Assembly (NCBI RefSeq): GCF_004297265.1
Contig: NZ_SCUT01000027.1
Coordinates: 1-64,000 of the forward strand
Origin: Reyranella sp.
GTDB lineage: Bacteria > Pseudomonadota > Alphaproteobacteria > Reyranellales > Reyranellaceae
Direction: 5' to 3'
Length of the DNA stretch: 64,000 nt
The notes under the pieces were generated by a model. The model saw only the letters and a program-made list of their open reading frames with translations, searched no databases and had not been told where the DNA came from. This document shows, piece after piece, positions 1 to 9,841 of this stretch. The translations under genes were made by a program, and so were the position numbers. Position 1 is the stretch's first letter, and the number at the start of each line of letters is the position of its first letter.

Positions 1-694
1 GCAGTTCATCTGCGGCAAGGAAGCGAGCCAGGACGAGTTCTTCTTCACGTTCAACTCGCTGGTCGAGCAGAACAAGCAGATCATCCTGTCCTCGGAGAAG
101 CCGCCGAGCGAGCTGCAGGACATCGAGGAGCGCATGCGCTCGCGGCTGGGCAGCGGCCTCGTGGCCGACATCCACTCGTCGACCTACGAGCTGCGCCTGT
201 CGATCCTGCAGACCAAGGCCGAGAACGCCCGGGTCCCGGTACCGGCCAACGTGCTCGAGTTCCTCGCGCACAAGATCAGCACCAACATCCGAGAGCTCGA
301 GGGCGCCCTGAACCGCGTCGTCGCGCACGGCCAGCTGATCGGCCGCGAGATCACCGTCGAGATGGCGCAGGACGTGCTGCACGACCTGCTGCGCCAGGCC
401 GACCGCAAGGTCACGGTCGACGAGATCCAGCAGCGGGTCGCCGCCCACTACAACATCAAGCTCGCCGAGATGAGCTCGCCGCGGCGCGCCCGCTCGGTCG
501 CCCGGCCGCGCCAGGTAGCGATGTACCTCGCCAAGCAGCTTACGACCCTCAGCCTGCCGCAGATCGGCAAGCGCTTCGGCAACCGCGACCATACGACGGT
601 CATGCATGCCGTGCGCAAGATCGAGGAACTCAAGGTTTCCGATCTGTCGATCGCCGAAGACGTCGAACTGCTCAAGCGCCAGCTACAGGGCTAG
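1..694 (+). CDS. dnaA: Chromosomal replication initiator DnaA, 3' part
   Basis: The reading frame is open from base 2 and ends at TAG 692-694, so the 5' end lies outside the window. About 230 residues are visible: the end of the AAA+ ATPase module (SEKPPSELQDIEERMRSRL, with the sensor/arginine-finger region) and the complete C-terminal domain IV, whose DNA-binding signature NRDHTTVMHAVRKIE recognises DnaA boxes. DnaA binds oriC as an ATP-bound oligomer and opens the duplex. dnaN follows after about 200 bases, the classic bacterial order. A hairpin-type terminator lies just after the stop codon. Confidence 0.97.
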   Translation, partial: QFICGKEASQDEFFFTFNSLVEQNKQIILSSEKPPSELQDIEERMRSRLGSGLVADIHSSTYELRLSILQTKAENARVPVPANVLEFLAHKISTNIRELEGALNRVVAHGQLIGREITVEMAQDVLHDLLRQADRKVTVDEIQQRVAAHYNIKLAEMSSPRRARSVARPRQVAMYLAKQLTTLSLPQIGKRFGNRDHTTVMHAVRKIEELKVSDLSIAEDVELLKRQLQG

Positions 695-716
695 AAAATC
701 ACAATTTATGACTGTG

Positions 717-741
717 AAACAGGCCGCTCAGGGCCTGTTTT
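717..741 (+). terminator. Rho-independent terminator after dnaA
   Basis: AAACAGGCC (717-725) pairs perfectly with GGCCTGTTT (732-740) around a six-base loop, and the 3' arm runs into a short T stretch. It begins 23 bases after the dnaA stop. This suggests that dnaN has its own promoter in the remaining spacer. Confidence 0.7.
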
Positions 742-783
742 GCATTGCGCCAAAGCCCCTAAATGCCTCTAGAAACAGCGAAA

Positions 784-815
784 TTGCTTCCCGCGGACAG
801 TCGGCGTGATATACT
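784..815 (+). promoter_or_regulatory. Possible dnaN promoter
   Basis: TATACT at 810-815 resembles a -10 box. TTGCTT at 784-789 is a weak -35 candidate, but the 20-base spacing is long. It lies between the dnaA terminator and dnaN. Weak support only. Confidence 0.3.
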
Positions 816-902
816 TTTCAACCGTTCCTCCGGCGCCCTTCGCAGCCTTGGGAACGGGCCATGAACCAGACCCAATCCGGCCCTGACTACGGCGACCAAA
901 AC

Positions 903-2017
903 ATGAAATTGACGATCGAACGGGCGGCCCTCCTGAAGGCCCTGGCCCATGTCCAGAGTGTCGTCGAGCGTCGGAATACCATCCCGATCCTGTCCAACGT
1001 GCTGATCACCGCCCAGAAGGGCCGGCTGAGCCTTGCCGCGACCGACATGGACCTCGCCATCACCGAATCGGTGGAGGCCAGCGCCTCCAAGACCGGATCG
1101 ACCACGGCGCCGGCCCACACGCTGTACGAAATCGTCCGCAAGCTGCCCGACGGCGCCCAGGTCGAGCTGGAAGCCGCCTCCGACAACAGCAGCCTGGTGA
1201 TCCGGGCCGGCCGCTCGCGCTTCACCCTGCAGTGCCTGCCGCCGGCCGATTTCCCGGCCATGACCGAAGGCGACCTGCCGCATCGCTTCCAGCTCCCGGC
1301 GACCGACCTCAAGGGCATCATCGACCGTACCCGCTTCGCGATCTCCAACGAGGAGACCCGCTACTACCTGAACGGCATCTATTTCCATGCCGCGACCGCG
1401 GCCGGCACCCAGGTGCTGCGCGGCGTGGCGACCGACGGTCATCGCCTGGCTCGGGTCGAGGTGCCGCTGCCCAAGGGCGCCGGCGAGATTCCAGGCGTGA
1501 TCGTGCCGCGCAAGACCGTGGGCGAGGTCCGCAAGCTGCTCGACGAGGGCGACGGTTCGGTCGACGTCGAGCTCAGCGACACCCGCATTCGTTTCTCCAG
1601 CGGCAACGTCACGCTGGTCAGCAAGCTGATCGACGGCACCTTCCCGGACTACGAGCGGGTCATCCCGACCGGCAACGACAAGGTCCTGAACGTGCCGTGC
1701 AAGGAATTCGCGCACGCCGTCGATCGCGTCTCGACGATTTCCACCGAGAAGTCGCGCGCCATCAAGCTGGCGGTCGGCAAGGGCATCGTCACGCTCTCGG
1801 CGACCAGCCCCGACGCGGGCAGCGCCAGCGAGGAGATCGAGGTCGAGTACAAGGATACGGCGCTCGAGATCGGCTTCAACTCGCGCTACCTGCTGGACAT
1901 CACCGAGCAGATTGCGGGCAGCGAGGCGCGCTTCCTGATGGCCGATGCCGGTTCGCCCACCCTGGTGCGTGACGGTGCCGACGAGAGCGCGCTCTACGTG
2001 CTCATGCCGATGCGGGT

Positions 2018-2021
<4 letters not shown>
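903..2021 (+). CDS. dnaN: DNA polymerase III beta subunit (sliding clamp)
   Basis: Ring-shaped processivity clamp that tethers DNA polymerase III to DNA. From ATG 903 (MKLTIERAALLKALAHVQSV) the product has 372 residues, the usual length, with three similar clamp domains and the conserved C-terminal ALYVLMPMRV that forms part of the partner-binding pocket. An in-frame ATG at 861 would add 14 residues not typical of the family, so 903 is preferred although no strong Shine-Dalgarno is visible before it. The stop codon overlaps the recF start in an ATGA, implying translational coupling. Confidence 0.97.
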
Positions 2022-6270
<4,249 letters not shown>

Positions 6271-7286: not shown

Positions 7287-7877
7287 ATGGCTCGCCTGAG
7301 GGAATTCGACGAGGACCGCGCGCTCGATGCCGCTGTCGACTGTTTCTGGAGTCGCGGCTACGAGGCCACGTCGGTGCGCGACCTCGCGCGCGAGATGGGG
7401 ATCGGCGGCGCCAGCCTCTACAATGCCTTCGGCGGCAAGCGCGCGCTGTTCGTGCGTGTCCTCGAACGCTACGCGAATCGCTCGACCCGCGAGCGCATCG
7501 CGCGACTCGAGGCCGGTCATCGTCCCAGCGAGGCGATCCGCGCGTTCCTGGCCGAGGTGATCGACCGTTCGCTGAAGGATCGCGACTGCAAGGGCTGCCT
7601 GCTGGTGAATTCCGCGCTCGACGTCGCGCCGCACGACGCAGGACTGGGCCGCGCGGTCACGGCCTATCTCGAGGAGATCCGCGCGTTCTTCCGCCGCAAC
7701 GTCGAGGCGGCGATCGAGGCCGGCGAGACGCCACGCGGCACCGACGCCGAGGCCCTGTCGATCCACCTGCTGGGCGTGCTGATGGGCATGCGCGTCCTGG
7801 CGCGCACCGGCGCCCGCCGGCACACGCTCGAAGCGGTCGTCCGGCCGGCGCTCGACCTTCTGGGGAGTCCGCAATGA
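7287..7877 (+). CDS. TetR-family transcriptional regulator
   Basis: 196 residues from ATG 7287. The N-terminal helix-turn-helix is typical: FDEDRALDAAVDCFWSRGYE, TSVRDLAREMGIGGASLYNAF and GGKRALFVRVLERYA. The C-terminal ligand domain resembles the TetR_C_6 type (DRDCKGCLLVNSALDVAPHD). An upstream in-frame start at 7248 would add 13 atypical residues. The gene is divergent from an EamA transporter and overlaps the next gene by ATGA, so it may regulate either the transporter or the downstream DUF1330-selenoprotein pair. Confidence 0.92.
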   Translation: MARLREFDEDRALDAAVDCFWSRGYEATSVRDLAREMGIGGASLYNAFGGKRALFVRVLERYANRSTRERIARLEAGHRPSEAIRAFLAEVIDRSLKDRDCKGCLLVNSALDVAPHDAGLGRAVTAYLEEIRAFFRRNVEAAIEAGETPRGTDAEALSIHLLGVLMGMRVLARTGARRHTLEAVVRPALDLLGSPQ

Positions 7878-8263
7878 TCGATCATCTGAACCATGCCGCC
7901 CTGAGCGCGCTGCCGGACGACGTCCCGGTGGTCATGCTGAACCTGATGCGCTTCCGCGAGCGCTCGCTCGACGGCAACGGCAGCGGCTGGGACGCCTACC
8001 TCCGTTACAGCGCGCTCACCATAAAGCTGATCAAGGCGCGGGGCGGCACGATCATCTGGACGGGCGATGCCGAAGCGGTGGCGCTGGGTGAACCCGAACG
8101 GCATCGCTGGGATTACGCGGCGCTGGTCAGCTATCCCTCGCGCGCCGCATTCCTCGCCATGATGACGTCGCCCGAATACGCGGAGGCCAATGTCGAGCGC
8201 GAGAACGGCTGCCTCGACCACGCCATCATCGCCACGCGCGAGACCTATCGGAAATTCACATGA
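7874..8263 (+). CDS. DUF1330-like protein
   Basis: 129 residues. VVMLNLMRFRERS near the N-terminus and DYAALVSYPSRAAFLAMMTSPEYAEA are typical of the DUF1330/EthD-like ferredoxin-fold family (dimeric alpha/beta barrels of mostly unknown role). The ATG overlaps the TetR stop (ATGA), and the selenoprotein gene starts 13 bases downstream, so the three probably form one transcript. Confidence 0.8.
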   Translation: MIDHLNHAALSALPDDVPVVMLNLMRFRERSLDGNGSGWDAYLRYSALTIKLIKARGGTIIWTGDAEAVALGEPERHRWDYAALVSYPSRAAFLAMMTSPEYAEANVERENGCLDHAIIATRETYRKFT

Positions 8264-8276
8264 GGAGCACGTCGCC

Positions 8277-9449
8277 ATGGTGAAACGTCTGAGCGAGATG
8301 CCCGAGGTCGAGGCCCACCACCTCCGCCGCATCGAATGTCCGACCCTCGACGACACGCCGGCGCTGCCGGGCAAGCCGCTCGCCCAGCGCCGCGTCGCGC
8401 TGATCTCGACTGCTGGCCTGCATCGGCGCGGCGACCGGCCGTTCCGCCCCGGCGACGGCAGCTATCGCGTCATTCCGGCCGAGACTCCGGCGCGCGACCT
8501 GGTCATGAGTCACATCTCGGTGAACTTCGACCGCACGGGCTTCCAGCAGGACCACAACGTCGCCTTCCCGATCGACCGGCTGCGCGAGCTGGTCGAAGAG
8601 GGTGTCATCGGCTCGATGGCCTCAATGCACTATTCGTTCATGGGCGCGTTTCCGCCGGATGCGGCCGAACCGCATGCCCAGCATCTCGCCGGCCTGCTGA
8701 AACAGGATGCCGTCGATGCGGCCCTGCTCGTTCCCGTTTGACCCGCCTGCACGCGCGCCGTGGGCGCGCTGGGCCACTTCCTCGAGCGTCAGGGCATTCC
8801 GACCGCCAGCATCAGCCTGGTGCGTGAACACACCGAAACCATCCGTCCGCCGCGGGCGCTCTGGGTCACGTTCGAGCTCGGCCGGCCGCTCGGCATTCCA
8901 GACGATCCCGATTTCCAGCGCCGCGTGCTGCGCGCAACGGCGGAGCTGCTGGAGCGCACCGACGGGCCGTTGATCGCCGACTATCCGGAAGAGATTGCCG
9001 AAGAGGCCGACTTCACCGGCTGGGCCTGCCCGATCAACCTGGCGCCCCAAGCCACCGACACGCTGGCGGCCGAGATCGACCGTCTGGCGACCTGGCACGA
9101 TCAGAGCGTCGCCAGAACCGGCCGCACCACCATAGGCGTTTCCGGTCTCGACATGCCGGCGGCCGGCGCCCTTCTGTCCACCGCCCTGACCGGGAACCTG
9201 CCGCCGGCCCAGGCGCTCAAGGAGGCGATCGACGACCTGCGGGCCTACTACTTGGAGGCGGCCTCGGCCTTTCCCGATCCCGGCACGGCGAAGAAGCGCA
9301 AGGCGTGGCTGTGGGACGAGACGCTGTTCGGCAAGGCGCTGCTCGACCTGCAGCCCCGGCTGGCCGCGAGTGCCGACCCGCAGCACAGGATCCTGGGAAA
9401 CCTGACCCTGATCCCGGCAACCGAGCGTCACCGGCTGGCGAAGAGCTAA
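8277..9449 (+). CDS. GrdB/PrdB-family selenoprotein (in-frame TGA = Sec155)
   Basis: The frame from ATG 8277 (preceded by GAGGAG) runs to TGA 8739-8741 and continues in the same frame, open, to TAA 9447-9449. Reading TGA as selenocysteine gives 390 residues with a PVUPAC motif (U155, C158), a UxxC redox pair. The N-terminal part has the family's features: VALISTAGLHRRGD, SHISVNFDRTGFQQDHNVAFP and LRELVEEGVIGSMASMHYSF. The part after TGA (TRAVGALGHFLERQGIPTA and RPLGIPDDPDFQRRV) matches the second half of the glycine/betaine/sarcosine/D-proline reductase B family. The sequence after TGA has no plausible start of its own, and a strong hairpin sits in the SECIS position. The substrate is unknown; a thiol- or selenol-based reductase is inferred. 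selA, selB, selC and selD are not in the window. Confidence 0.85.
8739..8775 (+). promoter_or_regulatory. Candidate bacterial SECIS element
   Basis: Directly after TGA 8739-8741, GCGCGCC (8753-8759) pairs perfectly with GGCGCGC (8763-8769) around a GTG loop at 8760-8762, about 19-21 bases after the TGA. C8752 can also pair with G8771 if U8770 bulges. Bacterial SECIS hairpins sit immediately 3' of the UGA with a G/U-containing apical loop at a similar distance. The fold is by eye, not computed. Confidence 0.6.
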
Positions 9450-9841
9450 AGTACCATCTGCGTCTGCGTCACCACGGCCACGAGCTTGCCCTCGGCAGTG
9501 GTGATGCGGGTGGTCCAGACCATGGTGCGGCGGCCGCGATGGATCGGCGTGGTCTCGCCGATCACCGTGCTGCCGACCGGCGCCGGCCCCACGAAGTTGG
9601 TCTTGCTCTCGATCGTCGTCGTGCCCTTACCCTCGGGCAGGTTGAGCACGGTGGCGGCGGCGCCCAGCGTGTCGGCAAACGCCATGACGGCGCCGCCGTG
9701 CAGGATCGCGGGCCGCGTGCAGAGTTCGGGGCGCACAACCATCTCGGCCTTCACCCCGGTCTCGCTCGCTTCCGTGAACCTGAGCCCCAGCACCTCGGCG
9801 AAGGGCAGCTTGATGGCGTTCAGGTGCTGGAGCTTGTCCAT
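9446..9841 (-). CDS. PaaI-family hotdog thioesterase
   Basis: 131 residues with the single-domain hotdog fold. The family signature RPAILHGGAVMAFADTLGA contains HGG and the acidic residue used in acyl-CoA thioester hydrolysis, followed by TTIESKTNFVGPAPVGS. Probably cleaves aromatic or medium-chain acyl-CoAs; the substrate is not determined. Its stop overlaps the convergent selenoprotein stop. The DoxX-like small membrane protein gene lies upstream on the same strand, 12 bases away. Confidence 0.88.
   Translation of the reverse strand: MDKLQHLNAIKLPFAEVLGLRFTEASETGVKAEMVVRPELCTRPAILHGGAVMAFADTLGAAATVLNLPEGKGTTTIESKTNFVGPAPVGSTVIGETTPIHRGRRTMVWTTRITTAEGKLVAVVTQTQMVL

What the first reader, a model, noticed from the sequence alone, without database searches (positions are those of the whole stretch)
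8277..9449. GrdB/PrdB-family selenoprotein: in-frame TGA splits the gene
TGA at 8739 is followed in the same frame by 235 open codons that continue the same protein family, giving a PVUPAC (UxxC) motif. The second half has no start codon of its own with a ribosome site. Standard gene callers would report two truncated ORFs. GrdB proteins are known mainly from anaerobic amino-acid fermenters, so an alphaproteobacterial member next to TetR and DUF1330 genes is unusual.
Basis: partly seen in the sequence, partly recalled or inferred. Interest (0 to 1): 0.85.

Follow-up and report, generated by a model that had tools for sequence, protein, structure and literature searches.

The report
Selenoprotein gene with in-frame UGA
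A Reyranella gene that looks broken by a stop codon is an intact gene in which that stop is read as the rare amino acid selenocysteine; it belongs to a widespread, so far unnamed branch of proteins related to clostridial proline reductase.

Summary
TGA 8739-8741 interrupts a conserved 390-residue frame, and this is a genuine selenocysteine (Sec) codon. All 24 genus orthologues and all 80 fetched relatives carry TGA at this point. The genome has selA, selB, selC and selD. A 7-bp hairpin (8753-8769) follows the TGA; it covaries, and its codons are the most synonymously conserved in the gene. Three family members have Cys instead, and their genomes lack selB and selD.

The protein is homologous to PrdB (34% identity, Sec aligned with Sec) but is not PrdB or GrdB. 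It scores 107 against a cut-off of 300. It has a C-terminal helical domain of about 150 residues with an invariant Cys251 and no Pfam match. The genome has no detectable PrdA, GrdE or GrdA.

It belongs to one clade spanning Alpha-, Beta- and deltaproteobacteria, Chloroflexota and Nitrospinota. In other Alphaproteobacteria the gene often sits beside selD, selA/selB or tRNA-Sec.

Most likely it is a stand-alone Sec/Cys reductase. The substrate is unknown.

The parts
8277..9449 (+). Selenoprotein gene, 390 aa when UGA155 is read as Sec; the long form of the PrdB-like family
8739..8741 (+). In-frame UGA, Sec155 (first residue of the UxxC motif, U-P-A-C)
   Evidence: TGA in 80/80 relatives; Cys in 3 relatives whose genomes lack selB
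8748..8750 (+). Cys158, presumed resolving Cys of UxxC
   Evidence: invariant in 45/45 family sequences and in PrdB
8753..8769 (+). Bacterial SECIS-like hairpin: 7-bp stem GCGCGCC/GGCGCGC with GUG apical loop, 11 nt after the UGA
   Evidence: covariation: 5 of 7 pairs changed on both sides, score 0.257 against 0.115 shuffled (0/500); lowest synonymous variation of 298 nine-codon windows starts at codon 156
9027..9029 (+). Cys251, invariant third Cys, in a low-confidence loop between the two domains
   Evidence: 45/45; also present in the Cys forms; pLDDT under 50 at 251-257
8373..8969 (+). PrdB-like alpha/beta domain (residues 33-231)
   Evidence: TIGR04483 matches residues 33-227; alignment to annotated PrdB; model pLDDT 86
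9063..9437 (+). C-terminal helical domain (residues 263-387), specific to the long form
   Evidence: no Pfam match; seven helices, pLDDT 87; no confident PDB match
7287..7877 (+). TetR-family regulator, first gene of the putative operon
   Evidence: PF00440; conserved upstream in most Reyranella loci
7874..8263 (+). DUF1330 protein, overlapping the end of the TetR gene; 13 nt before the selenoprotein gene
   Evidence: PF07045; often adjacent in Reyranella

Best explanation
The gene encodes a selenoprotein. Shown by sequence evidence: UGA155 is decoded as selenocysteine by SelB and tRNA-Sec, directed by a SECIS-like hairpin in the coding sequence just after the UGA. The protein belongs to a distinct long-form clade of the PrdB/GrdB superfamily, consisting of a PrdB-like alpha/beta domain carrying UxxC plus a clade-specific C-terminal helical domain and an invariant Cys251. 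Inferred: it works as a stand-alone cytosolic oxidoreductase. The Sec selenolate attacks an electrophilic substrate, Cys158 (possibly with Cys251) resolves the selenenyl intermediate, and an unidentified thiol reductant recycles it, without the pyruvoyl PrdA or GrdE partner. Inferred: its expression is controlled by the TetR protein encoded at the start of its putative operon.
For: TGA at the same point in all 24 genus orthologues and 80/80 relatives. Full Sec machinery in the genome: tRNA-Sec with anticodon tca, selB 466 bits, selA read from the ORF next to selB, selD 294 bits. Hairpin covariation and synonymous constraint. Cys exactly at 155 in three members, in genomes without selB, whereas 7/7 TGA members tested have selB. 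Cys forms nest inside the Sec clade. Sec155 aligns with Sec151 of annotated PrdB. Purifying selection after the UGA. Two paralogues in the same genome, each with one TGA at the same place. No GrdA, PrdA or GrdE found in the genome, while PF09338 does recognise PrdA.
Against: No protein-level or selenium-labelling evidence. Catalysis, substrate and reductant are inferred from homology and motif only. Gene neighbours vary between phyla, so context does not name a pathway. The absence of PrdA, GrdE and GrdA rests on searches of a 66-contig assembly whose control genomes were also silent.
Confidence: 0.9

Rival explanations
1. The TGA is a sequencing error or a recent nonsense mutation, and the gene is a pseudogene.
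For: Standard gene calling would give two truncated ORFs.
Against: TGA in 24 of 24 genus orthologues from independent assemblies and in 80/80 relatives down to 43% identity; dN/dS 0-0.35 on the downstream part.
Confidence: 0.01
2. Two separate proteins are made, by termination at UGA and re-initiation at GTG 8760.
For: GTG 8760 opens a 229-aa ORF.
Against: No Shine-Dalgarno sequence before it; the GTG is only one of several Val codons and is even GGG (Gly) in two relatives; the conserved hairpin overlaps it; the UxxC motif spans the junction.
Confidence: 0.01
3. It is the Sec subunit of a Stickland-type D-proline or glycine reductase.
For: 34% identity to annotated PrdB with aligned UxxC; PF07355 over its gathering score.
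Against: TIGR04483 107 bits against cut-off 300, while annotated PrdB proteins score 310 and 407; no PrdA/GrdE (PF09338, PrdA protein) or GrdA (PF04723) found in the genome; extra C-terminal domain; no prd or grd genes seen beside it.
Confidence: 0.04
4. It assists selenium assimilation or Sec synthesis itself, for example by delivering reduced selenium to SelD.
For: In 8 of 17 non-Reyranella Alphaproteobacteria loci of the class survey a selD (or Ndh-SelD fusion), selB or tRNA-Sec lies within 1.5 kb of the gene; 11 distinct loci in all (selD identity).
Against: In Reyranella the gene is not near sel genes. Cys forms persist in three genomes without selB and without selD over the cut-off, so the function outlives selenium use. 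Selenoprotein genes often sit near sel genes merely as clients, as fdh does here.
Confidence: 0.1
5. It reductively cleaves carbon-halogen or other activated C-X bonds, as proposed for the GrdB-like FarB.
For: A GrdB-like selenoprotein operon is the proposed fluoroacetate reductase of Cloacibacillus (PMC10838667). Some Desulfobacterota relatives sit beside HAD type II (haloacid dehalogenase) and DcmR-like MEDS regulator genes.
Against: These neighbours occur in only a few loci and none is in the window locus; no substrate data.
Confidence: 0.1

Closest known systems
PrdB, Sec subunit of D-proline reductase (TIGR04483)
   Same: Homologous catalytic domain (34% identity over residues 33-231 to the annotated Peptoclostridium acidaminophilum PrdB); Sec at the aligned position; UxxC
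   Different: 390 aa against 237-241; extra C-terminal helical domain with invariant Cys251; score 107 against cut-off 300; no PrdA found in the genome; different neighbours
GrdB, selenoprotein B of glycine/sarcosine/betaine reductase (PF07355, TIGR01917/TIGR01918)
   Same: Shares the Sec-bearing C-terminal part of GrdB; over Pfam's gathering score (31.7 against 22)
   Different: Lacks the roughly 190-270 N-terminal residues of GrdB; below the NCBIfam cut-offs; no GrdA or GrdE found
'Proline reductase PrdB' selenoproteins of the Sargasso Sea and GOS metagenomes (PMC1088965, PMC2398784)
   Same: PF07355 UxxC selenoproteins in oxic waters, with Sec and Cys forms; probably include members of this clade, since SAR116 genomes carry it
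   Different: Those papers, in the passages read, do not separate the long form, its C-terminal domain or its link with sel genes
Short PrdB-like paralogues in the same genome (C39:78500-79144 and C24:13753-14355)
   Same: One in-frame TGA at the same position (UPVCHQT)
   Different: 29-35% identical, about 285-310 aa, no long-form C-terminal domain; Cys versions occur in sister species

Membership tests
Selenoproteins (UGA-encoded Sec) | Conserved in-frame UGA | tested here: met
   80/80 relatives TGA
Selenoproteins (UGA-encoded Sec) | SECIS hairpin downstream of the UGA | tested here: met
   Covariation 0/500 shuffles, slid controls at most 0.098 against 0.257; single-sequence folding alone is not significant, z 1.45
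Selenoproteins (UGA-encoded Sec) | selA, selB, selC, selD in the genome | tested here: met
Selenoproteins (UGA-encoded Sec) | Homologues with Cys in place of Sec | tested here: met
   L176, L177, L178 have CPNC; no selB in those genomes
Selenoproteins (UGA-encoded Sec) | Selenium in the purified protein | not testable with these tools
   needs 75Se labelling or mass spectrometry
Pfam PF07355 (GRDB) | Score over the gathering threshold | tested here: met
   31.7 against 22, but only profile positions 272-345 of 347
PrdB equivalog TIGR04483 | Score over the curated cut-off of 300 | tested here: not met
   107.5; other long forms 100-121; annotated PrdB 310 and 407
PrdB / D-proline reductase | PrdA pyruvoyl proprotein in the genome | tested here: not met
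   PF09338 and a PrdA query find nothing; PF09338 does recognise PrdA; no genome known to hold PrdA was searched as a control
GrdB (TIGR01917/TIGR01918) | Score over the curated cut-off | tested here: not met
   38.9 against 602 and 46.7 against 65.45
GrdB / glycine reductase | GrdA in the genome | tested here: not met
   PF04723 no match; control genomes were silent too
PrdB/GrdB reductases | Reductive C-N cleavage of an amino acid | not testable with these tools
   enzyme assay needed

The most novel reading that the evidence does not exclude
The long-form clade is a distinct, widespread class of stand-alone Sec reductase with its own C-terminal fold. It is often co-encoded with selenophosphate synthetase or with an AhpD-like CxxU selenoprotein, and carries out a reduction that is not amino-acid (Stickland) reduction and has not been described.
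Probability: 0.35. Interest if true: 0.7.

Novelty: new variant of a known kind. Interest (0 to 1): 0.5.

Why it matters
This clade keeps Sec across several phyla and loses it mainly when the Sec machinery is lost, which implies an activity where selenium chemistry pays off. Standard annotation cuts the gene in two, and no curated model in NCBIfam 20.0 or Pfam covers the long form, so an abundant enzyme is largely invisible. The alignment, the three Cys forms and a cultured genus (Reyranella) make its substrate experimentally approachable.

Tried and rejected
Rfam scan of 8200-9500: only chance hits. Folding the single hairpin sequence: no better than shuffles, because the sequence is G+C-rich; covariation was needed. 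Structure comparison: the N-terminal domain gives only generic Rossmann-like and periplasmic-binding-like matches (Z at most 8.6), and the C-terminal domain no confident match, so no function was drawn from folds. Sequence search of the PDB: nothing. Arsenic link: ArsM-like and ArsS-like genes appear near some relatives but too far away and too rarely to support it. Neighbour survey outside Reyranella: MerA-like reductases, HAD type II, TetR, MEDS, CMD each in only about 4-6 of 43 loci; no universal operon. Long-form matches on plasmids: none, only PrdB. Papers on Reyranella selenoproteins: none relevant.

Full report
WHAT IS THERE. The frame 8277-9449 is open for 390 codons except for TGA at 8739-8741 (codon 155), giving LLVPV-U-PACTR. 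The window lies on contig 36 of a 6.02-Mb genome whose close relatives are Reyranella. The gene is third in a tight run, TetR 7287-7877, DUF1330 7874-8263, then this gene. A conserved TetR gene, with or without DUF1330, lies upstream in most Reyranella loci.

IT IS NOT A BROKEN GENE. Of the other 36 genomes of the genus that were searched, 24 have an orthologue at 77-96% identity, every one with exactly one TGA. A scan of 84,980 species genomes found 223 relatives; the best 80, down to 43-55% identity, all have TGA at the aligned codon, never TAA or TAG. dN/dS is low on both sides of the TGA. The candidate re-start GTG 8760 is not conserved and has no Shine-Dalgarno sequence.

IT IS SELENOCYSTEINE. 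The genome has tRNA-Sec (anticodon tca), selB (466 bits) and selA beside a formate dehydrogenase operon that itself appears split by an in-frame stop at the expected Sec site, and selD (294 bits). A hairpin GCGCGCC-GUG-GGCGCGC at 8753-8769 follows the UGA. Among 45 distinct sequences five of its seven pairs change on both sides, covariation score 0.257 against 0.115 in shuffles (0/500) and at most 0.098 when slid. The nine codons from 156 are the least variable synonymously of 298 windows in the gene. The single sequence does not fold better than shuffles, which is expected for such G+C content. The natural control is the strongest point: three long-form proteins without TGA have Cys exactly at 155 (PVCPNCTR), and their genomes have no selB and no selD over the cut-off, while all seven TGA-bearing genomes tested have selB. 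In the tree the three Cys forms are one branch nested inside the Sec clade, so Cys replaced Sec when the machinery was lost (inference).

WHICH FAMILY. Pfam PF07355 is met (31.7 against 22) but only over the last 74 profile positions. The best curated relative is PrdB, TIGR04483, at 107.5 bits against a cut-off of 300; other long forms score 100-121, whereas two annotated PrdB proteins score 310 and 407. Aligned with annotated PrdB of Peptoclostridium acidaminophilum (34% identity over residues 33-231) the two Sec residues coincide and Cys158, Asp85 and Asp92 are shared. The long form adds about 150 residues: seven helices, pLDDT 87, no Pfam match and no confident PDB match. Sec155, Cys158 and Cys251 are invariant in 45 of 45 family sequences, and Cys251 is kept in the Cys forms. 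In the tree the long form separates from the short paralogues with 100/100 support (several short rows have long branches). Searches for GrdA, and for GrdE/PrdA, found nothing in the genome; the PF09338 model does recognise a real PrdA. So it is a PrdB-like selenoprotein, not PrdB or GrdB.

WHERE IT SITS ELSEWHERE. In a draw of 385 alphaproteobacterial genomes, 38 have a match at E 1e-30; of 36 long-form matches, 33 carry TGA and 3 do not. In 8 of 17 such loci outside Reyranella a sel gene (selD or Ndh-SelD fusion, selB, tRNA-Sec) lies within 1.5 kb, and in 11 distinct loci within the larger stretches fetched (the L186 neighbour is SelD at 438 bits). In SAR116 (L118) the order is long form, tRNA-Sec, selA, selB. 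Independently, an AhpD/CMD-like gene with its own in-frame TGA (CxxU) lies directly upstream of the long form in three Betaproteobacteria (L099, L105, L128) and in L115, and directly upstream of the short paralogue in the window's own genome (L023:5556-6107).

HOW IT PROBABLY WORKS. Shown: Sec insertion signals, UxxC at the start of a helix after a strand, a third invariant Cys, no partner subunits found. Inferred: a selenolate nucleophile resolved by Cys158, perhaps relayed through Cys251, recycled by a thiol reductant; stand-alone rather than with a pyruvoyl subunit. The substrate is unknown. A role only in making Sec is unlikely, because the Cys forms persist without selB and selD. A GrdB-like complex has been proposed to cleave the C-F bond of fluoroacetate (PMC10838667), so activated C-X substrates are worth testing.

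NOVELTY. UxxC 'PrdB' selenoproteins were reported as abundant in oxic marine metagenomes in 2005 and 2008 (PMC1088965, PMC2398784), and a 2026 review lists D-proline reductase UxxC but, in the passages read, no long-form family (PMC13188914). I found no description of the long form, its C-terminal domain or its linkage to sel genes, but only open-licence papers were searchable. I therefore call it a new variant of a known kind.

Noticed in passing
L023:5556-6107 (G000:C24, window's own genome): A second TGA-interrupted gene, AhpD/CMD-like (INGCPF-U, CxxU), lies directly upstream of the short PrdB-like TGA gene: two adjacent selenoprotein genes.
   Followed up: partly
L118, L111/L187, L157, L185, L184, L186, L191, L192, L172, L175, L120: In other Alphaproteobacteria the long-form gene is next to selD or Ndh-SelD fusion, selA, selB or tRNA-Sec.
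   Followed up: partly
L018:2710-12925 (G000:C8): Formate dehydrogenase operon apparently split at its Sec codon, with fdhE, selA, a Sel1-repeat protein, selB and tRNA-Sec in one run.
   Followed up: partly
L179, L180, L181: Sister Reyranella species carry short PrdB-like paralogues with Cys (PNCPVCHQT) although the genus has Sec machinery.
   Followed up: no
window 8736-8738: The codon before the UGA is GTT in 42 and GTC in 32 of 80 relatives, and GTT in all 23 aligned Reyranella sequences, a possible recoding context.
   Followed up: no
L106, L113, L122 and L102, L114, L116, L123: Desulfobacterota relatives sit beside HAD type II (haloacid dehalogenase family) genes, or beside HTH-MEDS (DcmR-like) regulator genes.
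   Followed up: no
L112:6001-7215: One relative has an extra in-frame TAA as well as the TGA: sequencing error or decayed copy.
   Followed up: no
window 134-5687: The window starts in a dnaA-dnaN-recF-gyrB run, so the gene lies near the presumed replication-origin region (ORFs).
   Followed up: no
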